Below, in pieces: positions 3,557-22,611 of a stretch of 40,125 nt of DNA. Under the pieces are notes generated by a model. The model was not told where the DNA came from, did not search any database, and worked only from the letters and a program-made list of their open reading frames with translations. The position numbers and the translations under genes were made by a program. The stretch's first letter is position 1; each line of letters starts with the position of its first letter. Source of the DNA: an uncultured Opitutia bacterium (lineage in GTDB: Bacteria; Verrucomicrobiota; Verrucomicrobiia; Opitutales; CAJWYM01); the NCBI GenBank assembly GCA_913049555.1, contig CAJWYM010000034.1, positions 1-40,125 on the forward strand, written 5' to 3'.

Positions 3557-5332
3557 TCAATCTCTCCTTTCTAAGGCAAGTTTGATTTCGTGGCATCTTT
3601 TTTCAGTCAATGGATAAAGAAAACAAAGAAAAATCGAAATTATACATAAAATAAGAGGGAGTCCAATTTCTATGATTCTTAAAATCAACAATGTTTTTGG
3701 AGATTGCTTGGAAAGAGCGCTGACTTCTTTTTTCAATTCCTTCAAGGTTTCTAGGGTCTCCTTTTTCTGCTCATCGGAAAAAGGAGTTTCCATAGAAATT
3801 GTATTGAATTTTATTGAGGTTTGATTCAAATCAAACCTCAAATTATCTAAGAATTCAGTGTCTTTAGGGAATTCCTTTTGACGCTTTATAAGATACTCGT
3901 TGAGTTCTTGGGTCTTATTTTGAATCGAATTTTTCAATTCTATCCTTGTATTTGAGGAGGCTGGTATTTCTGAAGCGATCTCTTCACTCAAGATCTCTAT
4001 TTTCCCAGAAATTTGATCTACTTTAGGAATTCTTTTTTCATCAAAGTCAGTGGTAACCAAAAGAGCCCCTGTAACGAAACTGGCAAAAGCAGTGCCCATT
4101 TTAATGAACCACCAAAACACTGAATAGTAACTCCCTTCAGATCGAGTCCCTGTATGGAGCTCATCCTCATCGCAAATGTCCCCAACCATAGAGGCTCCGA
4201 GGGTAAAAAACATAAGCATCCCTGCAGAGAGTAAAATTGTAGGAATGAGCACCAGGTAGGGAAGGTTCGGATTGTAACAAAAGATCTTGCTTAGTTGAGC
4301 TGAACTCATCAACAGAATCGCTAAAATCAATGTGTGTTTTTTACCGATTTTTTTACTGATTATGTTGAGTGGAATAACCGCTAGTAATCCTGTTATGGCC
4401 CAGACAGTGCCACTGATTCCTAGCAGAGAACCGGCCATTACTTTGTCTCCTCCGAAAAGGTAATAAATACTGATATAGTAGTTGAATAAACCTACAAAGT
4501 TGAAACCCATAGCGAGGGTGAAAATAATGATTACTAATTTTAGAAAGGTTTTATTGGAGAGAGTTCTTTTCATCTCCTCCCAAAATTTTGATTTTTTTTG
4601 TTTTGAAATTTTCTCCTCATTCGCCTCTTTTAAAGCAAAAAACCACCAGATGGACATGGGTATAAGCACAATTGCGATCATAATGGAAACATAGCGCATG
4701 CCATCTACCTCATTGCCTCCTGTTCCTTTGAATATTTTTAAGTTTGCCAAATAAAACAACCAAGGGGTTCCCATTGCAAAGAGATTCCCTAGAAAGCTTT
4801 TTGCACTGAAAAGCTTTGTCCTTTCATGAGAATCTTTAGTCATTCCCATCCCCAATGCTCCATGAGGGATTTCGAATACCGTGCAAGAGGTGTAAAAGAT
4901 CAATAATCCTGTGAGGATAAACAGGAGCTGAAACCAAGTGTATGCTTGTTCGGAAGGAAAAAGACTTTGAACAAACGTTCCCTTTGGAACCCACCACATC
5001 AAAACAAAGCTAAGAGCAACTGCAATTCCTCCCACGAGAATAAAAGGTCTTCTACGTCCCCATCTGGAACGATAGTTGTCTGAAATATGTCCTATCAAAG
5101 GATCGGAGATGGCATCCCAAAGTCTTGGAATAATCAAAATCACTCCAAGCCAGAAAGCGCTCAATCCTAGACCAATATTTCCTATCAAACTGATTAATTG
5201 TCCAGCAACATTAAAAAGTGCGATCGGGATCAATCCGCCAAAACCAAAAGCGATTAAGGTGTTCCATGGCAAGGGTTGGTTGAGTTTTGTTCTATTCACA
5301 ATGTATCTTTTGGTGTTTTTATCCTCAGTCAT
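3557..5332 (-). CDS. GPH-family sugar:cation symporter with a large periplasmic insertion
   Basis: This 591-residue multi-pass membrane protein belongs to the glycoside-pentoside-hexuronide (MelB-like, MFS_2) symporters. The signature after TM2 is clear: PRLWDAISDPLIGHISD followed by the basic SRWGRRRPF loop (residues 69-97). Twelve membrane segments can be traced. Between TM11 (about 403-426) and TM12 (about 547-575) sits an extra, highly charged, helix-forming segment (about 433-540) where relatives have only a short loop. By MFS topology this loop faces the periplasm. The gene diverges from the GH3 gene with 307 bp between them, so shared control is likely. From context it probably imports sophoro-oligosaccharides released by the GH144 enzymes; the substrate is inferred. 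Confidence 0.92.
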   Translation of the reverse strand: MTEDKNTKRYIVNRTKLNQPLPWNTLIAFGFGGLIPIALFNVAGQLISLIGNIGLGLSAFWLGVILIIPRLWDAISDPLIGHISDNYRSRWGRRRPFILVGGIAVALSFVLMWWVPKGTFVQSLFPSEQAYTWFQLLFILTGLLIFYTSCTVFEIPHGALGMGMTKDSHERTKLFSAKSFLGNLFAMGTPWLFYLANLKIFKGTGGNEVDGMRYVSIMIAIVLIPMSIWWFFALKEANEEKISKQKKSKFWEEMKRTLSNKTFLKLVIIIFTLAMGFNFVGLFNYYISIYYLFGGDKVMAGSLLGISGTVWAITGLLAVIPLNIISKKIGKKHTLILAILLMSSAQLSKIFCYNPNLPYLVLIPTILLSAGMLMFFTLGASMVGDICDEDELHTGTRSEGSYYSVFWWFIKMGTAFASFVTGALLVTTDFDEKRIPKVDQISGKIEILSEEIASEIPASSNTRIELKNSIQNKTQELNEYLIKRQKEFPKDTEFLDNLRFDLNQTSIKFNTISMETPFSDEQKKETLETLKELKKEVSALSKQSPKTLLILRIIEIGLPLILCIISIFLCFLYPLTEKRCHEIKLALERRD

Positions 5333-5639
5333 GGATATGATTTAGATTTTTCTAATTTACTGGATGCTTTTTGTTAAGATAGGTACGCCCAAAGATAAAA
5401 TTTTTATATGATTTATTCTTTAATAAGCTCTCTTTTGAGTTCTAATTTTCTTTGAAGCCAAAAGATCAAAAGAAGTTTTTATAATTCGATCTTCAGGTTC
5501 TCATTTTAATTTTAATGGACACCTGAGGAGCAGCCTAAAATTTGAGAAGAGGGTATCTCATAAGAAATCTTTGTATAAATATCAGTGTTGCTGCCATATG
5601 TATATTTAAAATCTAGTATCTATAAAAATTTACAAAAAG
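5333..5639. promoter_or_regulatory. Divergent promoter region between transporter and GH3 genes
   Basis: These 307 AT-rich bases separate two genes transcribed away from each other, so both promoters must lie here. I cannot single out a -35/-10 pair with confidence and see no strong palindromic operator. No gene is supported. Confidence 0.5.
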
Positions 5640-7757
5640 ATGAGTAATCCAAAAAAAAACACCGTTGAGGAGATTCTATCCAGACTGACAGTCAAAGAGA
5701 AGGTCGGTCAACTCATACAAATTTCTATTAAAGATCCTGACTTGATTGAAAAGGTGAAATCTGGAACTGTGGGAACTGTTATCCTTGCAGAATCTCCAAC
5801 GGCTGGGAATGAGGTTCAAGATAAAGTTTTGCTTTCAGAGCTGAATGCAATTCAAAAAATTGCTCTGGAATCCAGCCCTGCTCTGCCTTTAGTTTTCGCT
5901 CGGGATGTCATCCATGGTCACAGGACGGTTTTCCCGATTCCGATTGGACAAGCAGCGACCTGGAACAGAGATTTAGTTAAAAAGGGTGGAGAAGTTTTAG
6001 CCAAAGAGGGTCGTGCTAATGGGATTCATTGGACCTTCACTCCTATGCTTGATATTGCAAGAGATCCAAGGTGGGGAAGAATTGCAGAAAGTTATGGAGA
6101 AGATCCATTTTTATCGGCTGCATTGGGGGAAGCTTGCATCACTGGTATTGAAGGACAGTCTCTTTCGGATACGACTTCTATGATTGCATGTGCCAAGCAT
6201 TATATTGGATATGGGGCTGCTGAAGGGGGGCGGGATTACAACACAACTGAAATCGGCGAAAATACACTTCGGAATATTTATTTGCCTCCATTCAAGTCTG
6301 CAGTCAAGGCCGGGGTCGGTTCTGTAATGGCCTCTTTCAATGAAATTAGTGGTAGTCCAGTCACAGGCAATCAAGACCTAATCAGAAGATTATTGAAGGA
6401 GGAATTGTGCTTTGAAGGGGTGGTATTGAGCGATTGGGAAGCAGTAGCAGAGTTGCTATTTCATGGAGTGTGTGAGTCCATGGAGGAGGCTGCTAATTTA
6501 GCATTGAATGCTGGAATCGATATTGAGATGGTCTCGACTTGTTACGAAAAGCATTTGGAAAAATTGGTTCATTCTGGTTCAGTAAAGCTTGAAATTTTAG
6601 AGGATTCCGTCCGTAGGGTTCTCGAAATGAAATTAAAATTGGGTTTGTTAGAAAATCCATACACTGCTGAAAATCTGGGAGTGGATGTGTATTTGAATGA
6701 GCATCATAAAAAAATAGCACTGGATTCGGCCACTGAGTCGATGGTTTTACTTGAAAACAAAAACAACCTTTTACCGCTTGAAATAGAATTGCAGAAAATT
6801 TTGCTTACAGGACCTATGGCTCATGCTCGTGAAGAATTATTTGGAACTTGGACGCTTGATGGCAAAAAATCAGAAGTCGAAAGTCTTGCTGATTTTTGTA
6901 AAAGTTTGCAGGCTTCAAACATTACAATTGGGGAATCAGTTCTCCACAGTGATCGCTTGCTTAAGGAAGTTTTAGACCATGAGATCACCCTCATTGCTTT
7001 GGGAGAACATCCGCAGAGAAGTGGAGAAATGAATTCGGTCAGCGATCTTAGTTTGCCTGCTGGCCAGCTAGATCTTTTGAAAAAAGTCAAGGGTATCGGA
7101 AAGCCTGTTGTGGTTCTTTTATTCTCAGGAAGACCCTTAGATCTAAGTGAAGTCAGACTCTATGCAGATGCTATCTTGTGGGCCTGGCACCCCGGAACAA
7201 TGGGGGCTCAGGCTTGCATCGATCTTACTTTTGGTATTGAAAGTCCTTCAGGACGATTGCCCGTATCCTTTCCTAGGAGTGTTGGGCACCTCCCTTGTTA
7301 TTACAATTATAAGAATACGGGTAGACCGCATACTAGATTCCCTTCCAATTATATCGATTCTCTCAGCAGTGCTCTCTATCCTTTTGGATATGGGTTGAGT
7401 TACTCGAAAGTGAAATACAGTCCAATCTCATTGTCCAAACAGGAGAAAAAAAAGGGAGAGACACTGACCGCTTCCATTTCCCTAACAAATACAGGCCCTG
7501 TTGCAGTTCAGGAGGTGGTTCAGTTGTACATTCGGGATTCTAAATCATCTATGACAAGGCCTGTAAAAGAACTGAAAGGATTTCAGAAAAGATTCCTTAG
7601 CCCTAACGAGACTGTCACGGTATCCTTTACGATCGATGATTCATTATTGAGTTATTACAATCATGAAAATAAATGGGTTGTCGAAAGTGGCTCTTTTGAG
7701 ATTTGGATTGCCCCCGATTCTGTTACTGGTGAATCCGTGTCATTGGATTTTATTTGA
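5640..7757 (+). CDS. GH3 beta-glucosidase, cytoplasmic
   Basis: This 705-residue enzyme has the full GH3 layout: a TIM-barrel domain (about 10-335), an alpha/beta sandwich domain (about 365-560) and a C-terminal fibronectin-III-like domain (about 600-695). The conserved KHYIGYGAAEGGRDYN block is present, and the nucleophile motif VLSDWEAV places the catalytic Asp at residue 265. There is no signal peptide, so it should act inside the cell. GH3 enzymes hydrolyse terminal beta-glucosides with retention; several members encoded beside GH144 or GH94 genes act on sophorose and short beta-1,2-glucans. Here it diverges from a sugar symporter and precedes GH144 and GH94 genes, which supports that specificity. 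The family is firm; the linkage preference is inferred. Confidence 0.93.
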   Translation: MSNPKKNTVEEILSRLTVKEKVGQLIQISIKDPDLIEKVKSGTVGTVILAESPTAGNEVQDKVLLSELNAIQKIALESSPALPLVFARDVIHGHRTVFPIPIGQAATWNRDLVKKGGEVLAKEGRANGIHWTFTPMLDIARDPRWGRIAESYGEDPFLSAALGEACITGIEGQSLSDTTSMIACAKHYIGYGAAEGGRDYNTTEIGENTLRNIYLPPFKSAVKAGVGSVMASFNEISGSPVTGNQDLIRRLLKEELCFEGVVLSDWEAVAELLFHGVCESMEEAANLALNAGIDIEMVSTCYEKHLEKLVHSGSVKLEILEDSVRRVLEMKLKLGLLENPYTAENLGVDVYLNEHHKKIALDSATESMVLLENKNNLLPLEIELQKILLTGPMAHAREELFGTWTLDGKKSEVESLADFCKSLQASNITIGESVLHSDRLLKEVLDHEITLIALGEHPQRSGEMNSVSDLSLPAGQLDLLKKVKGIGKPVVVLLFSGRPLDLSEVRLYADAILWAWHPGTMGAQACIDLTFGIESPSGRLPVSFPRSVGHLPCYYNYKNTGRPHTRFPSNYIDSLSSALYPFGYGLSYSKVKYSPISLSKQEKKKGETLTASISLTNTGPVAVQEVVQLYIRDSKSSMTRPVKELKGFQKRFLSPNETVTVSFTIDDSLLSYYNHENKWVVESGSFEIWIAPDSVTGESVSLDFI

Positions 7758-7963
7758 AGATGAATGATGCCTTAGAAATAGAGCCTAATATACGAAGTTC
7801 TTCCCTTTTTAAAAGCTCTTAAATCTCTTGGAGCGTTTCTATTTTTAGGAGTCTTTTGAACGCTTGTATTTATGTGTGTACTTATCCTTTTTCAAAAAAA
7901 TGTAGAATACCCAGTTGGCAAAGCGTATTGAGGTTAATAACAGTCATCGACTCATTTGAAATT

Positions 7964-9988
7964 ATGAATAAAACCCAAGTCCAATTTTTTAGAGTGACGC
8001 CACTCTTTTTTAAAATGGTTGTTTGCATACTTCCTTTGTTATGCTGCTTTCCTTTGTCTGGAAATTCCAAAAAACCGCATGTTGTCTTCATTACAATCGA
8101 TGATCTAAGCAAAGACAGTCTTGGGGTGTACGGATGTTCGGTTCCGGAGATCACTCCCAATATGGATAAGTTGGCGAAGGCGGGTTTGATGTTTGATCAT
8201 GGCCATGTGCATGCAGCCAATTGCACGCCTTCAAGAAATATCATGCAGACGGGCCAATATATGCACAATACTGGTATGAGTCGGGTGAGCGGTCCGGGAT
8301 CTGGGAATCACAAGGTGTTTCCAATTATTCCTGATATTTTCAAGGCTGCTGGTTACCACACTGGTTTGTTCGGTAAAAATTCTCATATGTCTCCTTACGA
8401 TCCCTACTCTGGGTTCGATGTGGAATATGGAGATTATGGGGAGGGGAAATTCCCTGAAGTCGTCTATGAAAAAACGAAGTTAGCATTTGCAAAAGCCAAA
8501 GATTTAAACCAGCCACTGTATTACAATATTAATATCTACGATCCACACGTGAAGTGGTATGGATGGGATAGTAAAAAGAACAAACCTTTTAAAGAATTGA
8601 GCAATCATCCGAGTCGTATTTATCAGTCTCATGAAATTCCATACCCGAGTGTTCTGCCCATGATTGAAGAACCTTACAAAAGCAAATTACTGGAGGAAAT
8701 TACTGCTTATTACAATACGGTCAAACGTGCGGATGATTCTATAGGGAAAATTTTAAAAGCAATCGAAGAAGCTGGAGAAATGGACAATACAATTATTGTC
8801 TTGGTGTCGGACCATGGAGCAGAGATTCCCGGCGTCAAAACTCAACTCAACCATTTTAGCACCAATGTTCCTTTTCTTTTTTACTGGCCTGGAGTAACCA
8901 TCCCGAATTCTGTCAATCTTGAGCATATGGTTGGAACCATCGATCTTTTACCGACTTTTTGTGAAATTGTGGGACAAGCGATTCCGCCGAAAACGGATGG
9001 AAAATCTATGGTCTCTATTCTGAAAAATAAAGAAATGGCCTCTTGGAGAGACTATATTTACAAAGAGCATGACTCGATCAATGTTATGCGAGCGATCGAG
9101 ACAAAAGAGTTTCTTTATCTTTTCAATCCATGGTCTAATGGGAGTCGGACTACTCGAGGAGTTACTAGGGGTAGACTGAGTTGTCAATTGATTGAGGAGG
9201 CAGCAGAAGATGGGAATTCTGAAGCTGCTGCGTGGATGAAACATTTCTTATACAGGACTCCTGAGGAGTTGTATGATGTTCAAAAAGATCCGGATTGTAA
9301 GGTAAATCTGATCGACAATCCAGAATTCTCCAAACCATTAATTAAGATGCAAAAGCTTTTTCAAAAAGTAATGACGGAATCTGGAGATCAACAATTTTAT
9401 GAAGCCTTTCCTAATAACAAGCTCTCTTCAATAGAAGATTCTTATGTAAAATATACAAAGAATTTGGAAGCATTGACTTATGATGCGAGCAGAACAAGGG
9501 CTCTTTTTTATGACCCAAGGGATGGGTATCGAGAAATTGGAAATACCTTGTTTGATCCTAAGGGTAACATGGATATTTGGAAGGTTGAAGATGCAGGGAT
9601 TTCATTGACTGTAGATGCAACCAAAAGAAGTAAAATTGCTAAAAAATTCAGTAAAAACCAGTTGACCTTTGATGCTAAGCAATCCAATCAATCTAGGTTG
9701 ATTTGTGAAGAGTCGATCGACGGAAGCTCTATAAATAGGATCCGTGTCAATGCTTATGCAACCACCTCAAATATTAGCAATGATACCCAATTGACTCTTC
9801 AGTATCACAATGGAAAAGACTGGGTAGATCTGACCAGATTAGCGGGTGGGAAGTTAAAAAAAGGGGCGGTTCAATTAGAAATAGAGGGGCCCTTTGTTAA
9901 AAATCTCAAGCTAGGAATCCAATGCAATTTTGGAACGGATACTCAGGGTCGAGTCGCCTTCTATGCACTCCGATGTGCTGTTAATTAA
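7964..9988 (+). CDS. S1-family sulfatase, sulfamidase-like, with extra C-terminal domain
   Basis: The formylglycine motif CTPSR follows the metal-binding IDD strand; with the start at 7964 the modified Cys is residue 87 of 674. The frame is open upstream to 7856, but those residues are not signal-like, whereas from 7964 (or 8015) a hydrophobic export signal precedes KKPHVVFITIDD. The DPH and SDHGAE metal and substrate segments are present. The layout most resembles heparan-N-sulfatase-like members of the alkaline phosphatase superfamily. About 130 residues after the sulfatase fold (from roughly RALFYDPRDGYREIG onward) look like an added beta-sandwich, possibly sugar-binding. It needs Cys-to-formylglycine maturation by an enzyme not encoded in this window. 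It probably removes sulfate from the glycan handled by this locus, in the periplasm. Confidence 0.88.
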   Translation: MNKTQVQFFRVTPLFFKMVVCILPLLCCFPLSGNSKKPHVVFITIDDLSKDSLGVYGCSVPEITPNMDKLAKAGLMFDHGHVHAANCTPSRNIMQTGQYMHNTGMSRVSGPGSGNHKVFPIIPDIFKAAGYHTGLFGKNSHMSPYDPYSGFDVEYGDYGEGKFPEVVYEKTKLAFAKAKDLNQPLYYNINIYDPHVKWYGWDSKKNKPFKELSNHPSRIYQSHEIPYPSVLPMIEEPYKSKLLEEITAYYNTVKRADDSIGKILKAIEEAGEMDNTIIVLVSDHGAEIPGVKTQLNHFSTNVPFLFYWPGVTIPNSVNLEHMVGTIDLLPTFCEIVGQAIPPKTDGKSMVSILKNKEMASWRDYIYKEHDSINVMRAIETKEFLYLFNPWSNGSRTTRGVTRGRLSCQLIEEAAEDGNSEAAAWMKHFLYRTPEELYDVQKDPDCKVNLIDNPEFSKPLIKMQKLFQKVMTESGDQQFYEAFPNNKLSSIEDSYVKYTKNLEALTYDASRTRALFYDPRDGYREIGNTLFDPKGNMDIWKVEDAGISLTVDATKRSKIAKKFSKNQLTFDAKQSNQSRLICEESIDGSSINRIRVNAYATTSNISNDTQLTLQYHNGKDWVDLTRLAGGKLKKGAVQLEIEGPFVKNLKLGIQCNFGTDTQGRVAFYALRCAVN

Positions 9989-10490: not shown

Positions 10491-12068
10491 ATGAAAAAAT
10501 TAATATTATTACTAACAATCAGCAGTGCGATTTGTATTTTCCTAAATGCTAAATCTAAGCCAAATATTTTATTCATATTCAGTGATGATCATGGATTGAG
10601 GACAATTGGGGCTTACAATCCTCAATTCAAAGGTACTCCTAACATCGACAGAATTGCAGATTCTGGGGCGGTCTTTACTAGAAGCTATTGTGAAAATAGC
10701 ATTTGCCAACCAAGCCGAGCTGCTGTTTTGACTGGTAAAGTAAGTGCTCATCATGGGGTTGTAAAGAATGGTGCGCATTGGGATAATAAACAGCAGATTT
10801 TTACTCGTTTGATAAAAAAAGCAGGCTACCAAACGGCGATGATTGGAAAGTGGCACATGCACCCTTTGCCCTCGGATGAATTTGATTACCACAAGACACT
10901 GACAGCCAATGCTGGACAAGGCAGGTATTACAATCCAGCTTTTGTAGAACATGATGGGAGTATCAAGATCGAAGAGGGTTATTCAACGGACGTGATTGCA
11001 TCGGAGTCTATCGAATGGATGAAAAATGCTGACAAAGAAAAACCTTTTATGATGATGTGCCAATTCAAAGCGCCTCACACCAATGTGATGCCTCCAATCA
11101 GGAATCTTCATATGTATAAAGACGAGGATGTATTCATGCCTGAAACCTACTTTGATAATTATCAGGGTCGCAACCCTTATGTGGCTAAAAGTTGGATGAA
11201 AATGCATGGAATGAAATCTTCAAATGTAGTCAAAATTTCACCTCCTATTGGGGAGTATCAATTGCCGACTAATGCAAAAGGTCCAGAGCGTAACTTCAAA
11301 GGAGATTTTAAATATTTGGCTGAGATGAATCCCGAACAGAGAAAAAAATGGCACGAACATTATGATCCTGAAAATGAGGATTACAGGGCTCGGGTTGCCT
11401 CTGGAGAACTTACAGGAAATAATCTATTTAAATACCGCTATCAAAGATATATGAAAGATTATCTTCGCGTCGTCTCTGCGATTGATCAGAATGTGGGTCG
11501 CTTGCTTGATTTTTTAGATGCGAGTGGTTTGGCTGAAAATACAATTGTTATTTACAGTTCCGATCAGGGATTTTTCCTGGGAGAACACGGGTGGTCTGAC
11601 AAGCGATTGATGTATGAAGAGTCTTTTCAAATGCCTTTTGTGATTAAGTGGCCCAATCAAATCAAGCCAGGCTCCAGAATAAACCATATGATTCAGAATA
11701 TTGATTATGCCCCAACATTCCTTGATATTGCGGGTCTCAAAATCCCAAGCGATATGCAAGGAAGGTCGTTGCTTCCATTGTTGAGAAACGAACCTGTTGA
11801 GGATTGGCGAGATTCTGTCTATTACCACTACTATCATAATGGAGCTTACAATTTACCAAAAATTGAGGGGGCTCGGACTGACCGATACAAACTGATTCGT
11901 TATTATGATCATAAGACATTGAATTATGGGGAGCAATGGGAGTTGTTTGATCTAAAAAAGGATCCCCAGGAGATGAGTTCCGTGTTCGATGATCCAGAGT
12001 ACTCCATCGTTCGAAATAAGATGGAAAAAGAACTCATTGCATTGAGAACACAATATGGAATTCAATAA
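10491..12068 (+). CDS. S1-family sulfatase
   Basis: This 525-residue protein starts with a clear Sec signal (MKKLILLLTISSAICIFLNA). It has the metal-binding FSDDHG, the formylglycine motif CQPSR with Cys72, the GKWHMH strand that normally contacts sulfate, and YSSDQGFFLGEHGW near the C-terminal metal site. The C-terminal region ends in the usual WELFDLKKDPQE segment. It appears complete and active, acting in the periplasm or at the cell surface. The KAPHTNVMPP segment resembles members that act on sugar 6-O- or 2-O-sulfates, but the position cleaved cannot be read from sequence. It is clearly a different subfamily from the sulfatases at 7964 and 21133. Confidence 0.92.
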   Translation: MKKLILLLTISSAICIFLNAKSKPNILFIFSDDHGLRTIGAYNPQFKGTPNIDRIADSGAVFTRSYCENSICQPSRAAVLTGKVSAHHGVVKNGAHWDNKQQIFTRLIKKAGYQTAMIGKWHMHPLPSDEFDYHKTLTANAGQGRYYNPAFVEHDGSIKIEEGYSTDVIASESIEWMKNADKEKPFMMMCQFKAPHTNVMPPIRNLHMYKDEDVFMPETYFDNYQGRNPYVAKSWMKMHGMKSSNVVKISPPIGEYQLPTNAKGPERNFKGDFKYLAEMNPEQRKKWHEHYDPENEDYRARVASGELTGNNLFKYRYQRYMKDYLRVVSAIDQNVGRLLDFLDASGLAENTIVIYSSDQGFFLGEHGWSDKRLMYEESFQMPFVIKWPNQIKPGSRINHMIQNIDYAPTFLDIAGLKIPSDMQGRSLLPLLRNEPVEDWRDSVYYHYYHNGAYNLPKIEGARTDRYKLIRYYDHKTLNYGEQWELFDLKKDPQEMSSVFDDPEYSIVRNKMEKELIALRTQYGIQ

Positions 12069-13941: not shown

Positions 13942-16900
13942 ATGATGGAAACAATTTTAGAAAAAAAAGATTTAGAAAAAACCTTTCACTTTTTAGACAG
14001 TGAAAAAATCCCATTGGTGAAAATCGAAAATAAGAATGGATTGGCGTTTCATTTTCATCCAAACGGGAATTTATTCTGCATAAAGAAAGGGGATCTATTA
14101 ATCAATCAATCCTTGGGGTGTCCTCTGGCTGGAAGCTTGACTCGTCTTTACCTTCGGGATCTAAAAGGAGGGCAATCCTCTTTATTAAACCAGAGTCCAG
14201 GAGCCGTAGAATTTGCAAGAACCGAAAATGGAGTCGAATGGTCTGGAAATTTTAAGGAAGTTGAATTTGTTTGTTCTCTTCATCTTTCGGAGACTGAAAA
14301 TTTTTGGAAATGGGCCATTGAAGTAAAAAATGTCTCTAGCAAACAGGCAGAACTAGATTTGTTTTTAGCTCAAGATTTTGGCCTCGCGCATCAGGGAGCG
14401 GTTCGAACCAACGAAGCTTATACTAGCCATTATTTGGATCATTTTGCACTTGAGGACTCTGACCTTGGCTGGTTGGTTTGCTCAAGGCAAACTCAAGCTC
14501 AGGGGGAGGGTTCTTTTCCATGGGCACTGACTGGATGCCTAGAAGGGGCTTCCTCTTACTGCACGGACGGAAGAGATTTTTACGGCAATGAATTTCGGAT
14601 GGATAGAAAGCCGATGGCACTTGAGCAAGAGTCCTTGACGAACCGGGTTTTGCAATACGAGATGGCGATGGCAGGAATCCAGAACAAACCCGTTCTTTTA
14701 GCGCCTGATCAGAAGGAGCAGTTCCATTTTTTCACCTATTTTGTAGAGGATCACGATCAACCCTCTAGTAGTAAAGACCTTCATTATGTGGGAGAAGTGA
14801 AGAAAATTATAAAAGACTTTGTCCCTGCCTCTGTGGTTGGAAGAGTCGATTTCGCAAAAAATGCTTATCAAACTTCAGAGTTTCTAAATGGAATGGAACT
14901 TACGGATTCTGAAGTCAGGGATCTTTATCCTTTAGATTGGAAGCAAGAGGAGAGGAACAATCAAGGACTTCTTTCATTCTTTTATCGTGACAGCCGACAC
15001 ATCGTTTTGCCCAGAAAAGAGGTGATTGTGGATCGTCCTCATGCAAATATGCTGGCAACATTTGGGGAGGAGATGATGCCAAACGAGAGTGCCATGTGTT
15101 CCACAAATTATATCTACGGCCTCTTCAATGCCCAAATCACTTGTGGAACGAAGAGACCTCCTGCTATGCTTTCTTTTGTTCGAAACCCTTATGACATTCT
15201 TCCTTCCTCGGGACAAAGAATTTTCGTTCAGTCAAAAGGAGGATGGCACTTATTGGGAATGCCAAGTCTTTATGAGTGCGGCTTGAATCATTCGACATGG
15301 CTTTATAAATTTGAAGATGGAATCATCGAGGTGAAATCGTATGCGAAAATGAAAGAAGCGTCCGTTTACATGAAGATTCTTTGCCATGGAGAGCCAAGAG
15401 CTTTTGCGATTTCTCATCAAGTTGCTTTTGGTGGAAATGAAATGGATGCATGTGGAACCATTAGTTTGAATCAAGATCAAATTTGCTTTCAAGAAAAAGG
15501 AAGAAATCATCCTGATTATTTTCTTAAAGTATATCACCCTGATAAAGTGGCTCGTATTTCAGATGCTACTTGGTTTGGTGATAAAAACTCGAACTATCCT
15601 TTTCTCGTGATCGAAACGGAGTCTGTCGAATCCTTTGAAATGGGCTTCTCGGGCGAAGCTTTTAAAAGCGACGAAGCCCCTGAATCTTCTGAAGTTTGTC
15701 AGAGCTCGGTGAATTCATTTTATCAAAAAAATTTACTAAACTTCGAGATAACCCATCAGGATAAATCTGTGGATAAATTCAATGAGATTATGCCATGGTA
15801 TCTTCACAATGCATTGATCCATTTTATTTCCCCTCATGGAATTGAACAGTATAAAGGAGGGGCGTGGGGAGTTCGAGACGTGAGTCAAGGATCCGTGGAA
15901 CTTTTACTGGCTACTGGCCAACAGGCTCTCGTTAAAGAAGTTTTGAAAATTGTTTTTTCAAGACAGTTGTTGAATCGTCGAGATTGGCCGCAGTGGTTCA
16001 GCCCGGGGAATGTTAAATTCTTGCAACTTCATTCCCATGGGGATGTGGTTGTTTGGCCACTAAAAGCTCTTTCTGACTATATCATTGCTACCGGAGATCT
16101 AGAGTTCCTTCAAGAAAAAGTGCCTTATCTGGAGGACGAACTTCTAGAGTTGACCGAAGAGAAGTTCACAATCGCTCATCATTGTAAATCAGTGGTGGAT
16201 GAAATTGTGGATCGATTTGTCGGGGATACCCATTTGATCTCTTATGGAGAAGGGGATTGGAATGATTCCTTACAACCCGCCAATAAAACCTTAAAGAAAC
16301 GACTTGTCAGTAGTTGGACAGTGGAATTGGTCTATCAAACTTTTTCATCTTTTCAGGAAGTTTGTAAGAAGTCAGGAGATGAGAATCAAGCCCTTGAACT
16401 CGATGAGCTTTGTGGGAAAATTAAGAAGGATTTTAATCATTACCTGATTCAGGAAAATGTTGTGAGCGGTTTTTCACTCTTTGACGAAAGTTTTACGGAT
16501 TGTGAGCCTATGCTTCATCCAAAGGATACAAAAACTGGAATTCACTACCGATTGCTTCCCATGACACGAGGAATGATCTCAGAGATCTTTGACCCAAAAC
16601 AAGCAGAACATCACTTAAATCTGATTGAAGAACATTTGTTATTCCCGGATGGGGCTCATCTAATGAATAAACCGCCCAAGTATCAGGGAGGTGTGGAAAC
16701 TTATTTTAAAAGAGCAGAGTCCGCATGTAATTTTGGCAGAGAAATTGGTTTGCAGTATGTGCATGCACATATCAGGTATGCTGAAGCGATGGCAAAATTA
16801 GGAAAACCGGATGAACTGTTGACAGCTCTGTATACGATCAACCCTATCAATATTAAAGAGGCAGTTAAAAATGCTGAGCTTCGACAAGCCAATCTTTATT

Positions 16901-17334
16901 TTAGCAGTTCGGATGGAGATTTTGCAAATCGCTATGAATCTTATGAAAAGTTTGACGAATTGAAAACTGGAGAACGATCCGTGAAGGGCGGATGGCGTTT
17001 GTATTCTAGTGGTCCTGGATTGTATATCAATCAGGTAATTACAAGGCTATTAGGGATTCGTTGGTCTTGGGATCACTTCATATTAGATCCTGTGATTCCA
17101 AAATCACTGGATGGATTGAATTTGTCTATTAATTTTTGTGCTTATCCCACACAGTTCGTTTATAAGGTGGAATCAAAAGGTTTTTCCCCCAGTAAGGTTC
17201 TTGTCAATGGAGCTCCAGTTAAAGAGTTTTCCTTGGATGCAAATCCTTACAGATCTGGAGGTGCAAAGATTCCTAAAGATAAATTTCTCAGCTATTTTAA
17301 GAATGAGGACAACCTCGTGGAAGTGATTTTATGA
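13942..17334 (+). CDS. GH94 phosphorylase, 1,2-beta-oligoglucan phosphorylase-like
   Basis: At 1130 residues this matches the unusually long GH94 proteins of the 1,2-beta-oligoglucan phosphorylase type (about 1,100 residues) rather than cellobiose phosphorylases (about 800). The N-terminal half has the blocks GWLVCSRQTQAQGEGSFPWA and LTGCLEGASSYCTDGRDFYG. The C-terminal catalytic barrel has KGGAWGVRDVSQG and GEGDWNDSL; the general acid should be an Asp of GDWND (Asp772 or Asp775, most likely the latter). There is no signal peptide, so it is cytoplasmic and uses phosphate to release alpha-glucose 1-phosphate from imported beta-1,2-gluco-oligosaccharides, saving ATP. It is in an operon with the GH144 gene. 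The ATG at 13945 is an equally possible start. The family is firm; linkage specificity is strongly suggested by the length and neighbours. Confidence 0.92.
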   Translation: MMETILEKKDLEKTFHFLDSEKIPLVKIENKNGLAFHFHPNGNLFCIKKGDLLINQSLGCPLAGSLTRLYLRDLKGGQSSLLNQSPGAVEFARTENGVEWSGNFKEVEFVCSLHLSETENFWKWAIEVKNVSSKQAELDLFLAQDFGLAHQGAVRTNEAYTSHYLDHFALEDSDLGWLVCSRQTQAQGEGSFPWALTGCLEGASSYCTDGRDFYGNEFRMDRKPMALEQESLTNRVLQYEMAMAGIQNKPVLLAPDQKEQFHFFTYFVEDHDQPSSSKDLHYVGEVKKIIKDFVPASVVGRVDFAKNAYQTSEFLNGMELTDSEVRDLYPLDWKQEERNNQGLLSFFYRDSRHIVLPRKEVIVDRPHANMLATFGEEMMPNESAMCSTNYIYGLFNAQITCGTKRPPAMLSFVRNPYDILPSSGQRIFVQSKGGWHLLGMPSLYECGLNHSTWLYKFEDGIIEVKSYAKMKEASVYMKILCHGEPRAFAISHQVAFGGNEMDACGTISLNQDQICFQEKGRNHPDYFLKVYHPDKVARISDATWFGDKNSNYPFLVIETESVESFEMGFSGEAFKSDEAPESSEVCQSSVNSFYQKNLLNFEITHQDKSVDKFNEIMPWYLHNALIHFISPHGIEQYKGGAWGVRDVSQGSVELLLATGQQALVKEVLKIVFSRQLLNRRDWPQWFSPGNVKFLQLHSHGDVVVWPLKALSDYIIATGDLEFLQEKVPYLEDELLELTEEKFTIAHHCKSVVDEIVDRFVGDTHLISYGEGDWNDSLQPANKTLKKRLVSSWTVELVYQTFSSFQEVCKKSGDENQALELDELCGKIKKDFNHYLIQENVVSGFSLFDESFTDCEPMLHPKDTKTGIHYRLLPMTRGMISEIFDPKQAEHHLNLIEEHLLFPDGAHLMNKPPKYQGGVETYFKRAESACNFGREIGLQYVHAHIRYAEAMAKLGKPDELLTALYTINPINIKEAVKNAELRQANLYFSSSDGDFANRYESYEKFDELKTGERSVKGGWRLYSSGPGLYINQVITRLLGIRWSWDHFILDPVIPKSLDGLNLSINFCAYPTQFVYKVESKGFSPSKVLVNGAPVKEFSLDANPYRSGGAKIPKDKFLSYFKNEDNLVEVIL

Positions 17335-17427: not shown

Positions 17428-19155
17428 ATGACAACTAAATTTATGCAAATGACTCGTATCCTTATTTTCTGTTTATTATCCATTTTTATAATAAATCCAC
17501 TCATTGCTGAGATCCGAGTGAACAAATTATTTTGTGATCATATGGTTCTTCAGCAAGAAATGAAAGTGGCTGTATGGGGAACGGGGACTGCCAATCAGAG
17601 GGTAAGTGTCCTTGGGTCATGGGGGAAAACAAGTGAAGGCTCGGTAGATGAGGACGGAAGGTGGAAGTTGTTTCTTCAAACCCCTTCTCATGGAGGTCCT
17701 TACACACTTTCTATTCAAGGTGAAAAGACCGAAATCCAAATAAAAGATGTTTTAATTGGTGAGGTGTGGCTTTGTGCTGGGCAGTCGAATATGGGTTGGT
17801 CATTGGGCCAAACTTTTCTTGGGGATGAGGAAGCCCAAAAGAGTGAGCATCCCAATTACAGAATCTTTAAATCACAGAGGGAACATTGGCATGAACCCTT
17901 AGAGGAATCTAGAGATCGATTGGCAAGCTGGAAAAAATGCAATGCTGAGACTGCATCCAAAACTTCTGCTGTTTCTTACTATTTTGGAAAGAAATTACAT
18001 CAAGAGTTGGGGATTCCAATAGGAATTATTGTTCAGGCGTTTGCAGGAACCCCCATTGAAGGTTGGATGCCTTGGGAAATTCAAAATGAGGATCCAAGGA
18101 CTGTTGTTCATAAAAAAGAATTGGACGACTTGAGCCAACGGCTTGCTGAGAGAGGCAGGGAGTCCTTGGAGAAATCTATGGCTAAGTTTGAGAAAGAACT
18201 TTCTCTTTACAATCAAAGAATTGATAAAGGAGAGACCATGAAGAGTAAATTAAGAGTTCTTTCTCCTCCAATCATTACTAAACCAGCAAATCTCGGACAT
18301 CAGTATCCTCAGCATATTTACAACGCTATGATTCATCCTATTCGACCCTTTGGTATTCGCGGTATGATCTGGTATCAGGGAGAGCGTAATTCGAAAACAG
18401 TCCAACAGGCTTCTAATTATAAAAATCAGTTGGCTTTGCTGATTGAATATTACAGATCTTCTTGGTTTGAGAATTCTGAGGGCAATATGGAAAAAGATTT
18501 CCCTTTCTTTTTTACCCAATTACCAAGCTGGCATGCTGAACAAAAAAAACCTGTTGAGGGTTTGGAATCTCCTTGGGTTGTCAATCGAGAGATGATGCGG
18601 CATGTCACACAGCAGGTTCCAAAAACTGGAATGGCTGTTTCTATTGATACTGGGGACGCAGTTTCTTTGCATCCTAAAAATAAGAAACCAATTGGTATCC
18701 GACATGCCTATTTGGCACTGAAGCAAGTGTACAATTTTGATTTGGTAGATTACGGACCTCGTTATGAAAAATTCCGAGTCAATGAGAACCTAGCTGAAAT
18801 TGAATTCTCATCAATTGGCTCTGGCATCATGGGAGACAAGGGTGATTTGATCGATTCATTTGCCTTAGCAGGTGAAGACAAAGTTTGGCATTGGGCGAGT
18901 GGAAAAATTCAAGGAAACAAGGTTGTTGTAAGTTCTCCTGAGGTAAATAAACCAGTTGCAGTCAGGTATGCGTGGGCAATGAATCCCTCTAAAAGGAATT
19001 TGCTTTATAACAAGGAAGGGATTCCCGCATCTCCATTTCGAACGGATGATTGGCCTTTGTTTGAAATGGATGCCGAGGAGGTGATGATTGGTAAGCCTGC
19101 AAAAGATTTGCCTAAATCTACGAGCGACTGGTCGCGACCTTTGATGACTCAATGA
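17428..19155 (+). CDS. Sialate-O-acetylesterase-like SGNH esterase, exported
   Basis: This 575-residue protein has an N-terminal signal (start at 17428, with alternatives at Met6 and Met8) and a beta-sandwich lead (FCDHMVLQQEMKVAVWGTG) typical of the SASA/sialate O-acetylesterase family. Catalytic landmarks are CAGQSNM with Ser120, FAGTPIEGW, MIWYQGERN and DAVSLHPKNK with His415. These enzymes remove O-acetyl groups from sugars. No sialic acid genes are nearby; in this locus it more likely removes acyl substituents from the glucan or a co-occurring glycan before import. It lies 93 bp after the GH94 gene and may belong to the same transcript. Activity is expected because the Ser and His are in place; the substrate is inferred. 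Confidence 0.9.
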   Translation: MTTKFMQMTRILIFCLLSIFIINPLIAEIRVNKLFCDHMVLQQEMKVAVWGTGTANQRVSVLGSWGKTSEGSVDEDGRWKLFLQTPSHGGPYTLSIQGEKTEIQIKDVLIGEVWLCAGQSNMGWSLGQTFLGDEEAQKSEHPNYRIFKSQREHWHEPLEESRDRLASWKKCNAETASKTSAVSYYFGKKLHQELGIPIGIIVQAFAGTPIEGWMPWEIQNEDPRTVVHKKELDDLSQRLAERGRESLEKSMAKFEKELSLYNQRIDKGETMKSKLRVLSPPIITKPANLGHQYPQHIYNAMIHPIRPFGIRGMIWYQGERNSKTVQQASNYKNQLALLIEYYRSSWFENSEGNMEKDFPFFFTQLPSWHAEQKKPVEGLESPWVVNREMMRHVTQQVPKTGMAVSIDTGDAVSLHPKNKKPIGIRHAYLALKQVYNFDLVDYGPRYEKFRVNENLAEIEFSSIGSGIMGDKGDLIDSFALAGEDKVWHWASGKIQGNKVVVSSPEVNKPVAVRYAWAMNPSKRNLLYNKEGIPASPFRTDDWPLFEMDAEEVMIGKPAKDLPKSTSDWSRPLMTQ

Positions 19156-19184
19156 CAAAAATCAGAACAGTGAGGGGAACAAAG

Positions 19185-19202
19185 ATTCTAATTACTTAGA
19201 AT
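19185..19202 (+). other. Perfect AT-rich hairpin after the esterase gene
   Basis: ATTCTAA and TTAGAAT form a 7-bp stem with a TTAC loop, 29 bp after the esterase stop. It lacks a proper T-tract, so termination is possible but weak. Confidence 0.3.
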
Positions 19203-19298
19203 TATGATTTTTATCCTAAATGAATTTAAATTATTTGGTCAGAACGATCATAAATTTAAAATACAATCTTACTAGAATTTTAAACTATTTTAATCCCT

Positions 19299-21077
19299 GT
19301 GAGTTTTAATTACAAAAAACCCTTTTTTTGGCTCTTCATTTGCCTTCTTTCTTTTAGAATGGGTCTTGGCTATGAATTTACGTCCAAAGATGGCCGAACT
19401 CTATCTGGACGCTTGATACAAGTGGCCAAAAATCAAGTGACAATCGAAAGAGGATTTGATGGGAAAGTTTTTTCACTGCTAAAATCTCGCTTTACTATGC
19501 AAGATCAAAATTATTTTAATTCATGGAGTGAGCGAGGAATGGGTCAAAAATATGAGTTAAAATCTGGAGAGAAAATTAAGGCTTCAGCCAAGTCTCTGCG
19601 AATTGATTTGATTTGGCTGCGGGAGAATTGGAATCATTTTGAGGTGCAACGCTCCCAATCGATGGATGGACCTTGGGATCTAATGGAGAATCCAACGAGT
19701 TCTTTTCATCTTTTTAGTGATTATATTGGCGAATCAGGGAAAACTTTTTTTTATCGTGTTCGTGGATCCAATCTCAAAAAAAATAAGATCATAAAGTCTG
19801 GAAAATGGTCCGAGGTAGTGAGTGCTACAAGTTTGGAGTATGATAGAAGTTCTTTGCTGGATGATGTTCAAGAGGCAGCGGTTCGTTTTTTTGTGGAGGA
19901 AGCTCACCCGATGTCCTCATTGGCGCCAGAAGGGAAACCTGGCTGGGGGAATGTGTGTGCAATTGGATCCTCTGGTATGGGTATTACAACCTTGATCGTA
20001 GGTTCTGAACGACAATTTATATCTAGAAAGAAGAGCGCATTTTTAGTTTGTAATATTTTAAAATTCCTCGTCGAGAAAGCAGAATCCCACAAAGGTGCTT
20101 TTGGTCATTGGATTGATGGCGAGAGTGGTTTGACTAAGAATTTTGGGGGTCCTAAAAACTCCGTAGACATTGTAGAAACTAGTTTTATTTTACAAGCGGC
20201 TATCATTTCTAGGGAATACTTTGACCGAGACAACGCAGTAGAGTCCTCTATTCGAACTTATGCGGATTATTTAAGTGATTCAATGCAATGGAATCACTTT
20301 TTGGTGGATGGTAAAAATGGTCCTCATTTGGTTTGGCATTGGCACCCAGATCTTGGTTTTAGTGATTTGCCTATAAACGGGTTCCATGAGGCGATGATGC
20401 CTTATATCTTAGGCCTAGCTTCAGAGAGATATCCTATACCTGTTGAGTCTTTTTTGAGTGGATGGATGAATGGGGGACGTTCATTTGGTCCTGATTTGGA
20501 GCACTTTGGAATCAAACATAGTTTAGGCAGAGGAATTGGCTGGCCTTTGTTTTTCGCTCATTATTCTCATATTGGGTTTGATCCGAAGAAGTTGATTTTT
20601 AAAGAGAAAACTTACTTTGATCATTTTACAGATGCGGTTCGAATCCATAAATTGTATGCGGAAAGTAGAGCTTCGGAGTTTAAAGGATATGATAAACTGT
20701 GGGGATTGGCTGCAAGTTTGAGTCCGAATGGCTACCGTGCAAATCATCCTGGCAAAAACGACGATGGCACGATTGCTACAACAGCATCTTTGTCTAGTAT
20801 GCCTTATTTACCGGAGGAGATTTTGGATTCAATGGATACCATGTATCTAGACTATGGGCATGAACTTTGGGGTTGCTACGGATTTTACAATGCAATCAAT
20901 CCGACTGACAATTGGGTTGGAAAGAAATATATTGGGATCGAATTGGGTCCAATCGCTCCTATGATTGAGAACTACAGAAGTGGCTTGTTCTGGAATTTAT
21001 TTATGAAATCAAGAGAGGCCAAAAGAGCTTGTGCTCTAATCGCTGCGGATGAGAAAATGAAAATATACATAAAATAA
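19299..21077 (+). CDS. Second GH144-like enzyme with SHD1-like N-terminal domain
   Basis: The start is a GTG; the first 23 residues form a signal peptide, and no upstream ATG fits. Residues about 25-75 (FTSKDGRTLSGRLIQVAKNQ, then VTIERGFDGKVFSLLKSRFT) match the SHD1-like (SLA1 homology) module common in exported planctomycete and verrucomicrobial proteins. A fibronectin-III-like domain and a glycoamylase/GH144 domain follow. Conserved blocks include HKGAFGHWIDGESG, VDIVETSFILQAA (Asp290 and Glu293), HLVWHWHPD, SEFKGYDKLWGLAASLSPNG, DDGTIATTASLSSMPY and GPIAPMIENYRSGL. It differs from the 12274 paralogue at HPMSSLAPEG (versus HPVSGLPREG) and before DIVET, so its chain-length or decoration preference may differ. 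It ends 55 bp before the third sulfatase, probably in one operon. Confidence 0.87.
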   Translation: MSFNYKKPFFWLFICLLSFRMGLGYEFTSKDGRTLSGRLIQVAKNQVTIERGFDGKVFSLLKSRFTMQDQNYFNSWSERGMGQKYELKSGEKIKASAKSLRIDLIWLRENWNHFEVQRSQSMDGPWDLMENPTSSFHLFSDYIGESGKTFFYRVRGSNLKKNKIIKSGKWSEVVSATSLEYDRSSLLDDVQEAAVRFFVEEAHPMSSLAPEGKPGWGNVCAIGSSGMGITTLIVGSERQFISRKKSAFLVCNILKFLVEKAESHKGAFGHWIDGESGLTKNFGGPKNSVDIVETSFILQAAIISREYFDRDNAVESSIRTYADYLSDSMQWNHFLVDGKNGPHLVWHWHPDLGFSDLPINGFHEAMMPYILGLASERYPIPVESFLSGWMNGGRSFGPDLEHFGIKHSLGRGIGWPLFFAHYSHIGFDPKKLIFKEKTYFDHFTDAVRIHKLYAESRASEFKGYDKLWGLAASLSPNGYRANHPGKNDDGTIATTASLSSMPYLPEEILDSMDTMYLDYGHELWGCYGFYNAINPTDNWVGKKYIGIELGPIAPMIENYRSGLFWNLFMKSREAKRACALIAADEKMKIYIK

Positions 21078-21120
21078 TTTCCTCCGTTTGCGTATTCATT
21101 GTATAGATCCAAAATTTAAT

Positions 21121-21126
21121 AGGAGA
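21121..21126 (+). promoter_or_regulatory. Ribosome binding site that sets the sulfatase start
   Basis: AGGAGA lies six bases before the ATG at 21133. This favours that start over the in-frame ATG at 21088, whose extra residues carry charges ahead of the signal peptide. Confidence 0.75.
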
Positions 21127-21132
21127 TTTTTT

Positions 21133-22611
21133 ATGAAATTTAAAAGTTTACATTGTTTTTTTGTTCCCTCCACACTTTTTACTGGGTGTCGTTTTTTAGC
21201 TTTCTTTTTCATTTCATTTGGAATGAGCTTGGAAGCAAAACTTCCTAATTTCTTATTTATTGTAGCGGATGATCTTGGCTATGGAGATGCCAGTTACCAA
21301 GGGGGAGATTTAGAAACTCCTCATATTGACTCGATTGCCAAGAATGGAGTTGTTTTTACAGATGGTTATGTGACCGCTCCTGTTTGTGCACCCTCTAGAG
21401 CTGGGTTTCTGACTGGAAAATACCAACAAAAATTTGGTTTTTGGGACAATACAGGTCCTTATCAACTGAGTAAGGAGATTGTTCAAGGAATTCCTAAAGA
21501 CCTACCCATTCTCTCTGAGCGATTGAAGCCTCTTGGATATGTGACTGGATTGTTTGGCAAGACTCATGATGGTAAAGCGGAAGAGATTATGCCTTTCAAT
21601 CGTTGGGATGAGTTTTATGGTTTTAACAATGGAGCTTCTAATTTTTTGGCAGGATTGAATCGAACCCACAATCCTATTTTTCATAATAAGAAAATTGTTT
21701 CTGAAACTTATAAATCCAAAGGGATCTCTTCCTCTTCCGTGAATAAGAATGGAATTCTTCAAATTGACAGAGAGGAATATTTGACCGATAAATTAGGGGA
21801 AATGGCAGTTCGTTTTATCGAGGAGAATAAAGAAAATCCATTCCTATGCTATATCCCATTCAACGCGGTACATGGGCCCTTCCAAGCTCCTAAGGAGATG
21901 GTTGACAGTTATTCTCATATTGAGGACATGGAGAGACGTATCGTTTGTGCTATGCTCGAATCTATGGATGACAATATTGGGGAGGTTCTCGGATGTTTAG
22001 AAAAAAATGATTTGATTAAAAACACCTTGATTGTTTTTATTTCCGACAATGGAGGACACCAAGCATCTCCTTGCTTCCCTCTAAATGGAAAAAAGGGAAC
22101 CTTTTGGGAGGGTGGGCTTCGGGTTCCTTTTTGTGCTCGATGGGAGGGTGTGATTCCAGCCGGTAAGGTTTATAAGGCACCTGTGAGTTCTCTGGATGTT
22201 ATGCCAACTTTCATTGAAGCTGCTGGTGGGAAGGTGGATCCGGATTGGGGCTTGGATGGAGTGAATTTATTGCCATTTATTTTGGAGGAAAAGGAATCTC
22301 GTCCTCATGAAGTTTTGTATTGGGTTTGGGGGAATGGTCAAAAAAAGGCAATCAGAGAGGGTGATTATAAGGCTGTTACTGTCAATGGGGGTAAAGTTTA
22401 TCAGCTTTATGATCTGTCTCAGGATGTGGGCGAAAAAGAAAATATCGCTTCATTGTTTCCAGAAAAATTGGCAGCTTTGATTGAACGCCAATTGGAATGG
22501 GAAAAAACTTTGGCTCCGCAAAAATGGGGATGGAGCAAAGCTCTTGGCTACAAAAATCCATCTTTTGGAAAACCGGAACCCTATCACGATCCTAATTACG
22601 AGATCAAATAG
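21133..22611 (+). CDS. S1-family arylsulfatase-like enzyme
   Basis: This 492-residue protein begins with a long hydrophobic export signal, then NFLFIVADDLGYGD (metal-binding DD) and the formylglycine motif CAPSR with Cys85. Further on are LFGKTHDG, PFNAVHGPF and FISDNGGH, and the GKKGTFWEGGLRVP segment that is characteristic of arylsulfatase-type S1 enzymes. The C-terminus carries the usual YQLYDLSQDVGEKENIAS block. It seems intact. It would remove sulfate from a glycan in the periplasm after modification of Cys85 to formylglycine. It follows the second GH144 gene by 55 bp and ends 10 bp from the convergent kinase gene, so it closes the catabolic island. The exact sulfate position is not readable from sequence. 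Confidence 0.92.
   Translation: MKFKSLHCFFVPSTLFTGCRFLAFFFISFGMSLEAKLPNFLFIVADDLGYGDASYQGGDLETPHIDSIAKNGVVFTDGYVTAPVCAPSRAGFLTGKYQQKFGFWDNTGPYQLSKEIVQGIPKDLPILSERLKPLGYVTGLFGKTHDGKAEEIMPFNRWDEFYGFNNGASNFLAGLNRTHNPIFHNKKIVSETYKSKGISSSSVNKNGILQIDREEYLTDKLGEMAVRFIEENKENPFLCYIPFNAVHGPFQAPKEMVDSYSHIEDMERRIVCAMLESMDDNIGEVLGCLEKNDLIKNTLIVFISDNGGHQASPCFPLNGKKGTFWEGGLRVPFCARWEGVIPAGKVYKAPVSSLDVMPTFIEAAGGKVDPDWGLDGVNLLPFILEEKESRPHEVLYWVWGNGQKKAIREGDYKAVTVNGGKVYQLYDLSQDVGEKENIASLFPEKLAALIERQLEWEKTLAPQKWGWSKALGYKNPSFGKPEPYHDPNYEIK

What the first reader, a model, noticed from the sequence alone, without database searches (positions are those of the whole stretch)
3557..22611. Candidate locus for a decorated (possibly sulfated) beta-1,2-glucan
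Two exported GH144-like glucanases, a cytoplasmic GH94 of oligoglucan-phosphorylase length, a cytoplasmic GH3 and a GPH symporter form a complete beta-1,2-glucan route by known families. Interleaved with them are three sulfatases of different subfamilies and an exported O-acetylesterase-like enzyme. Known beta-1,2-glucan clusters I recall do not carry sulfatases. This suggests a natural sophoran bearing sulfate and acyl groups, or a mixed sulfated glycan containing beta-1,2-glucose.
Basis: partly seen in the sequence, partly recalled or inferred. Interest (0 to 1): 0.85.

Follow-up and report, generated by a model that had tools for sequence, protein, structure and literature searches.

The report
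Gene cluster for decorated sophoran degradation
This is a bacterial gene cluster that very probably breaks down beta-1,2-glucan and, because a matching set of sulfatases and esterases sits beside the same kind of glucanase in a freshwater relative, probably a sulfated and acylated form of it that has not been isolated; the idea of such a polymer was already proposed in 2019 for marine Bacteroidetes.

Summary
The genes are there as described. Core: two exported GH144 proteins with the E142/E211 positions of CpSGL kept, a cytoplasmic GH94 of the SOGP type (all LpSOGP substrate residues I could check are conserved), a cytoplasmic GH3 and a GPH symporter. Three sulfatases and a SASA esterase lie between them. 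The beta-1,2-glucan reading of the core is strong.

The sulfatases alone prove little: this 3.1 Mb genome has about 114 sulfatase genes, and about 8% of random 19-kb windows hold three or more. Thirteen related SOGP+GH144 loci lack sulfatases. Against coincidence: a Prosthecobacter MAG, found by its GH144 only, carries SASA (58% identity), SulfA-like, SulfB (47%), GH144, a PF00144 hydrolase (52%; its window relative lies outside the given interval) and a SulfC-like gene in one short run. SulfB recurs in the SOGP+GH144 locus of a distant genus; SulfC-like genes adjoin GH144 in two more genomes. S1_11-type sulfatases are over-represented beside GH144.

The claim that known clusters lack sulfatases is wrong: Lapebie et al. 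2019 reported GH144+sulfatase PULs in marine Bacteroidetes and proposed a sulfated polymer. This is a new, richer variant, not a new idea. No activity was tested.

The parts
3557..5332 (-). GPH (MFS_2) symporter, 591 aa, divergent from the operon, with an unusual 124-aa segment before the last helices
   Evidence: PF13347 1.4e-70; nearest relatives 53-55% in the G249/G355 SOGP+GH144+SulfB loci; long segment in G249 too (98 aa; 18 aa in eight others)
5640..7757 (+). GH3 beta-glucosidase, no signal peptide
   Evidence: PF00933/PF01915/PF14310; PDB relatives include 5xxl and Lin1840 4zoa
7964..9988 (+). SulfA, exported sulfatase, subfamily not assigned, extra C-terminal region
   Evidence: PF00884 2.2e-44, CTPSR; relatives 44% in G413, 33% in the Prosthecobacter MAG gene run
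10491..12068 (+). SulfB, exported S1_11-type sulfatase (6-O-sulfatase type)
   Evidence: best PDB relatives 9s03, 7p24, 5g2v (N-acetylglucosamine-6-sulfatase); orthologs near GH144 in L108/L109 and L257
12274..13890 (+). GH144a, exported beta-1,2-glucanase-type enzyme
   Evidence: PF10091; 365 bits to CpSGL 5gzh; D135, D139, E142, E211 equivalents kept
13942..17334 (+). [quoted passage not shown]
   Evidence: SOGP_N/SOGP_2nd/SOGP_4th domains; 5h3z 679 bits with catalytic and subsite +1/+2 residues conserved
17428..19155 (+). exported SASA-type O-acetylesterase
   Evidence: PF03629; 58% relative in the L257 gene run; class background at most about 41% apart from G261 (52%) and G521 (61%, partial)
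19299..21077 (+). GH144b, exported beta-1,2-glucanase-type enzyme; D135 equivalent is lysine, E142 and E211 kept
   Evidence: PF10091; 5z06 and 5gzh relatives; residues
21133..22611 (+). SulfC, exported sulfatase nearest to carrageenan sulfatases (S1_19 region of the family)
   Evidence: PDB best 6prm, 6bia, 9hh3; SulfC-like genes directly adjoin GH144 in G399 (L051) and twice in G413 (L089)
22622..24673 (-). Ser/Thr protein kinase with C-terminal extension, candidate regulator
   Evidence: PF00069; kinase + ECF sigma pairs also flank the G249/G355 locus
24805..25422 (+). ECF-type sigma factor, candidate regulator
   Evidence: PF04542; 33-34% relatives in L108/L109
25461..26660 (-). exported PF00144 serine hydrolase (beta-lactamase fold, likely esterase); member of the co-conserved set, outside the given interval
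   Evidence: PF00144; 52% relative between GH144 and the SulfC-like gene of L257

Best explanation
The locus degrades a beta-1,2-glucan that carries sulfate esters and O-acyl groups. Shown by sequence: family membership, catalytic and subsite residues, compartment signals, and recurrence of the set SASA + SulfA + SulfB + GH144 + PF00144 hydrolase + SulfC in another genome. Inferred mechanism: outside the inner membrane the SASA and PF00144 enzymes remove acyl groups and the sulfatases remove sulfates (SulfB probably from O6 of D-gluco-configured units at non-reducing ends), which lets the two GH144 enzymes cut the chain to sophoro-oligosaccharides; the GPH symporter imports these; SOGP phosphorolyses oligomers of three or more units to glucose 1-phosphate and sophorose, and GH3 hydrolyses the remainder to glucose. 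The kinase/ECF sigma pair is a likely regulator.
For: GH144, SOGP, GH3 and GPH families; SOGP subsite residues; GH144 E142/E211. SOGP with GH144 recurs in 16 other genomes. The module recurs in the Prosthecobacter MAG L257, fetched by GH144 similarity alone. SulfB ortholog (best of 114 own sulfatases, 521 v 360 bits) plus the GPH ortholog in the G249/G355 SOGP+GH144 loci. SulfC is the best of 114 for sulfatases directly beside GH144 in G399 and G413; four independent loci of about 14 with such best hits, rough binomial 0.002. S1_11-type sulfatases are 6 of about 24 independent GH144-adjacent sulfatases against 4 of 114 in the genome (p about 1e-4; 0.005 if the background is 7%), including all four sulfatase-bearing Bacteroidota loci seen. 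FGE-type maturation enzymes are present. No cyclic glucan synthase-type PF10091 match and no MdoG in the genome, so the locus looks catabolic rather than for its own glucan.
Against: The genome has about 114 sulfatases, and 8-15% of 19-kb windows hold three or more. Thirteen related SOGP+GH144 loci carry no sulfatase. On the GH144 tree the sulfatase-associated rows are scattered (17 changes). SulfB and SulfA also occur together without GH144 in G413, and the SASA relative of G261 lies beside another sulfatase without GH144. L257 has no SOGP in its (possibly incomplete) genome. The clade of the window's GH144s has no characterised member among the rows compared. No isolated sulfated beta-1,2-glucan was found in the papers searched.
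Confidence: 0.58

Rival explanations
1. An ordinary beta-1,2-glucan locus into which unrelated sulfatases of a sulfatase-rich genome have been shuffled; the sulfatases act on other glycans.
For: About 114 sulfatase genes in 3.1 Mb; three or more in about 8% of random 19-kb windows; sulfatase-free core loci lie almost all in genomes with few sulfatases (1-21, one with 86) and sulfatase-bearing ones in genomes with 77-340.
Against: The same specific sulfatases, not random ones, recur near GH144 in L051, L089, L108/L109 and L257, in L257 together with the SASA and PF00144 relatives; S1_11 enrichment.
Confidence: 0.22
2. The substrate is a different sulfated glycan (a heteropolysaccharide of an alga, cyanobacterium or bacterium) in which beta-1,2-linked glucose stretches are only a part; the sulfates sit on the other sugars.
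For: Three different sulfatase types; SulfC is nearest to galactan (carrageenan) sulfatases; Bacteroidota GH144 PULs with S1_11 sulfatase also carry GH43, and Maribellus has a GH95 next to the sulfatase.
Against: No glycoside hydrolase for another sugar in the window cluster; GH43 also occurs in GH144 loci without sulfatase, so it does not track the sulfation.
Confidence: 0.15
3. The S1-family enzymes remove phosphoglycerol or other phosphodiester groups from osmoregulated periplasmic or cyclic glucans, not sulfate.
For: Beta-1,2-glucans of proteobacteria carry phosphoglycerol, succinyl and acetyl groups (general knowledge); some members of this superfamily are phosphodiesterases, and the PehA profile matches weakly.
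Against: All three score far below the PehA cut-off (101, 172 and 86 bits against 900), have sulfatase-type CxPSR motifs and match solved sulfatases best; SulfB is S1_11-like.
Confidence: 0.04

Closest known systems
GH144-containing PULs with an added sulfatase in marine Bacteroidetes (Lapebie et al. 2019, PMC6499787; Maribacter dokdonensis, PMC8072126)
   Same: GH144 + GH3 + sulfatase in one cluster; the same inference of a sulfated beta-1,2-glucan; in the four sulfatase-bearing Bacteroidota loci examined here the sulfatase is S1_11-like, as is SulfB.
   Different: No SusC/SusD gene recognised in the window cluster; phosphorolytic SOGP and GPH symporter; three sulfatase types, a SASA and a PF00144 hydrolase; the closest cluster found here is in a Prosthecobacter MAG, so the trait is probably not only marine.
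Listeria innocua / Lachnoclostridium beta-1,2-glucan enzymes: SOGP with an adjacent beta-glucosidase (PMC5309861)
   Same: SOGP with conserved subsite residues plus a beta-glucosidase.
   Different: No sulfatases or esterases in what I read there; an exported GH144 pair here.
GH144 enzymes CpSGL and BDI_3064
   Same: Fold family, E142 and E211 equivalents; the same large GH144 branch of the tree.
   Different: The window's two proteins lie in a separate six-row clade without a characterised member; GH144b lacks the D135 equivalent.
S1_11 sulfatases BT3177/BT4656 (GlcNAc-6-O-sulfatases)
   Same: SulfB is closest to these among solved structures, after 9s03.
   Different: Substrate unknown; about half of the subfamily, especially aquatic members, lacks the region that binds the N-acetyl group (PMC10154612), so a non-acetylated gluco unit is conceivable.

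Membership tests
GH144 | PF10091 catalytic domain and best solved relatives in GH144 | tested here: met
GH144 | Catalytic glutamates equivalent to CpSGL E142 and E211 | tested here: met
   both proteins keep both; roles from PMC12102758
GH144 | D135 and D139 equivalents (mutation reduces CpSGL activity) | tested here: inconclusive
   GH144a keeps both; GH144b keeps D139 but has K at D135; [quoted passage not shown]
GH144 | Activity on beta-1,2-glucan | not testable with these tools
   no characterised member in the six-row clade
[quoted passage not shown]
   PF21958, PF21250, PF21270
[quoted passage not shown]
   identical in the printed alignment to 5h3z, read by eye; roles from PMC5309861; Y1004/S1005 lay in the cut part of the printout and were not checked
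S1 sulfatase (FGly type) | CxPxR maturation motif and PF00884 domain | tested here: met
   FGE homologues in the genome
S1_11 subfamily (SulfB) | Closest to S1_11 reference proteins | tested here: met
   no SulfAtlas profile was available, so the subfamily is by nearest relative only
S1_11 subfamily (SulfB) | His + Asp/Arg recognition triad | not tested
   residue numbers were not available in held papers
GH144+sulfatase PUL of marine Bacteroidetes | GH144 and sulfatase in one cluster | tested here: met
GH144+sulfatase PUL of marine Bacteroidetes | SusC/SusD pair | tested here: not met
   no such gene among the Pfam-scanned ORFs 3557-39899

The most novel reading that the evidence does not exclude
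There is a widespread, chemically undescribed beta-1,2-glucan that is 6-O-sulfated and O-acylated, in fresh water as well as the sea, and a conserved stripping module (SASA + PF00144 hydrolase + three sulfatase types) that travels with GH144 in Verrucomicrobiota-like genomes is dedicated to it.
Probability: 0.33. Interest if true: 0.72.

Novelty: new variant of a known kind. Interest (0 to 1): 0.5.

Why it matters
A sulfated beta-1,2-glucan has been proposed since 2019, but no isolation of it turned up in the papers searched here. This cluster gives a compact, testable enzyme set (two GH144, SOGP, three sulfatases, two esterases) and names which sulfatase type (S1_11) accompanies GH144 across phyla, so both the existence of the polymer and the position of the sulfate can be tested with defined enzymes. 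It also suggests that the trait is not only marine and not only in Bacteroidetes.

Tried and rejected
Chance as a full explanation: disfavoured, because the sulfatases and esterases recur as relatives of the same genes although their number is unremarkable. GH43 as a marker of decoration in Bacteroidota: rejected, present without sulfatase too. GH144 phylogeny as a marker of sulfatase association: led nowhere, scattered. Phosphodiesterase reading: not favoured. Own cyclic-glucan or OPG synthesis: no support. RNA elements: none. Promoter and terminator scans: below the shuffle means, no information. Structure of the small secreted protein 26653-27192: poor model (pLDDT 53), no fold search made. 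Papers on sulfated cyclic glucans with sulfatases: none found.
Full report
Observation. On the plus strand lie GH3 (5640-7757), sulfatase A (about 7964-9988), sulfatase B (10491-12068), GH144a (12274-13890), a GH94 (13942-17334), a SASA esterase (17428-19155), GH144b (19299-21077) and sulfatase C (about 21133-22611); the GPH symporter (3557-5332) is divergent. Gaps between the plus-strand genes are about 50-500 bp. The esterase, both GH144s and all three sulfatases start with signal-peptide-like segments; GH3 and GH94 do not.

The core is a beta-1,2-glucan route. The two PF10091 proteins are the only ones in the genome, match the solved enzymes CpSGL (5gzh) and BDI_3064 (5z06) with E-values of 1e-77 to 1e-107, and keep the equivalents of CpSGL E142 and E211, whose mutation drastically reduces activity (PMC12102758; residues). 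GH144b has lysine at D135, a residue that is not conserved in the wider clan. The GH94 has the domains that define the SOGP type, and every LpSOGP residue for subsites -1, +1 and +2 that I could read off the printed alignment (N138, Y141, Q621, R630, D631, W758, D760, R907, R916, E917, Y922, H924) is identical (roles from PMC5309861). GH3 is related to 5xxl and Lin1840, among many others; its linkage is not settled by sequence. In a sample of 388 genomes of the phylum plus near relatives, SOGP lies with GH144, often with GH3 or GPH, in 16 other genomes.

The base rate weakens the naive argument. The genome has 118 PF00884 matches, about 114 genes, in 3.1 Mb. Thirteen SOGP+GH144 loci carry no sulfatase within the stretch read; their genomes have 1-21 sulfatase candidates (one has 86). 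The three other loci that do carry one lie in genomes with 77-340. On the GH144 tree sulfatase-bearing loci are scattered (17 changes).

Specific co-conservation argues the other way. I compared each sulfatase near a GH144 elsewhere with all 114 sulfatases of this genome. SulfC is the best match for the sulfatase directly beside GH144 in G399 (L051) and for both in a tandem pair beside GH144 in G413 (L089), though by small margins (345 v 320 bits). SulfB is clearly the best match (521 v 360 bits) in the SOGP+GH144 loci of G249 and G355 (one genus), where the GPH symporter is also the closest relative found (53-55%). The window's GPH has a 124-residue segment before its last helices and G249's has 98, where eight symporters of other SOGP+GH144 loci have 18.

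The strongest case is L257, a contig of a MAG titled Prosthecobacter debontii, one of the 80 loci returned by a search with GH144 alone. Within 10 kb it has, in order and on one strand, SASA (58% identity to the window's), a SulfA-like sulfatase (33%), SulfB (47%, best of 114), GH144 (39%), a PF00144 hydrolase (52%) and a SulfC-like sulfatase (38%, rank 4). The SASA match is well above the class background of about 41% or less, with two other exceptions: G521 (61%, short contig) and G261 (52%, beside another sulfatase without GH144). No SOGP was found in the L257 genome, so the stripping module and the phosphorolytic core are separable.

SulfB is nearest to S1_11 enzymes, which remove 6-O-sulfate from GlcNAc. 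Sulfatases of that type make up 6 of about 24 independent GH144-adjacent sulfatases but 4 of 114 in this genome (p about 1e-4; 0.005 with a 7% background). All four sulfatase-bearing Bacteroidota loci in the 80 (Maribellus, Lewinella, two Pontibacter) have this type. The background share comes from one genome, so this is suggestive, not proof. A review notes that the N-acetyl-binding region is missing in about half of S1_11, especially in aquatic members (PMC10154612), which would leave room for a non-acetylated sugar; that is inference.

What is known. Lapebie et al. [quoted passage not shown] Maribacter has GH3, two GH144, susCD and sulfatase genes together (PMC8072126). What is new here is the richer set with two esterases and three sulfatase types, the phosphorolytic/GPH route without SusCD, the recurrence of the set in a Prosthecobacter MAG, and S1_11 as the recurring partner type.

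Regulation is inferred only: a Ser/Thr kinase and an ECF sigma factor lie at 22622-25422, and two pairs of the same kind lie at the G249/G355 locus; related genes also lie near other sulfatases, so they are not specific for this substrate.

Verdict. Beta-1,2-glucan core: very likely (about 0.9, inference from families and residues). Dedicated removal of sulfate and acyl groups from that glucan: more likely than not (about 0.58). No activity was measured, and the position of the sulfate is not known.

Noticed in passing
window 3557-5332; L246:606-2261; L356:10597-12369: The GPH symporter has a 124-residue hydrophilic segment before its last helices; the G249 ortholog has 98 residues there, eight others 18. 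The G355 ortholog is equally long overall (591 aa from a possible start), but its segment was not measured. Function unknown.
   Followed up: partly
window 22622-25422; L108:6944-9504; L246:2422-4847; L356:8123-10548; L233:16180-18809: Ser/Thr kinase plus ECF sigma factor pairs repeatedly flank sulfatase or glycan clusters in this and distant genomes; possible shared regulatory logic.
   Followed up: partly
window 25461-27192: PF00144 serine hydrolase overlaps a small secreted protein (179 aa) with no Pfam match; the hydrolase has a 52% relative inside the L257 GH144 gene run, the small protein has none recognised there.
   Followed up: partly
G000 whole genome: About 114 sulfatase genes in a 3.1 Mb genome, a very high load, with three FGE-type matches.
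   Followed up: partly
L231:7026-13109 (G413:C47): Two SulfB relatives (55-57%) and a SulfA relative (38%) in tandem without GH144; in the same genome two GH144s of the window's clade lie elsewhere, one with two SulfC-like genes.
   Followed up: partly
G233:C1:2290415-2291914 (L232:9485-10915): The closest SulfC relative found (61-64% identity) lies among unrelated genes in a distant genome; the genome search counted five stop codons in its frame, but a 477-aa open frame covers most of it.
   Followed up: no
window 28134-31880: 1248-aa protein with a pilin-like hydrophobic N-terminus and no Pfam family at the cut-off.
   Followed up: no
window 32834-33607: A second, short SASA-type esterase, next to a RecN-like gene and SbcD/SbcC genes; probably unrelated to the cluster.
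   Followed up: no
L286:12565-14382, L302:11480-13210: GH43 with an F5/8-type C domain is a frequent partner of GH144 and GH3 in Bacteroidota loci, with or without sulfatase; its role on a beta-1,2-glucan is unexplained.
   Followed up: partly
window 19299-21077: GH144b has lysine in place of CpSGL D135, unlike GH144a and the three solved enzymes compared; it may differ in mode of action.
   Followed up: no
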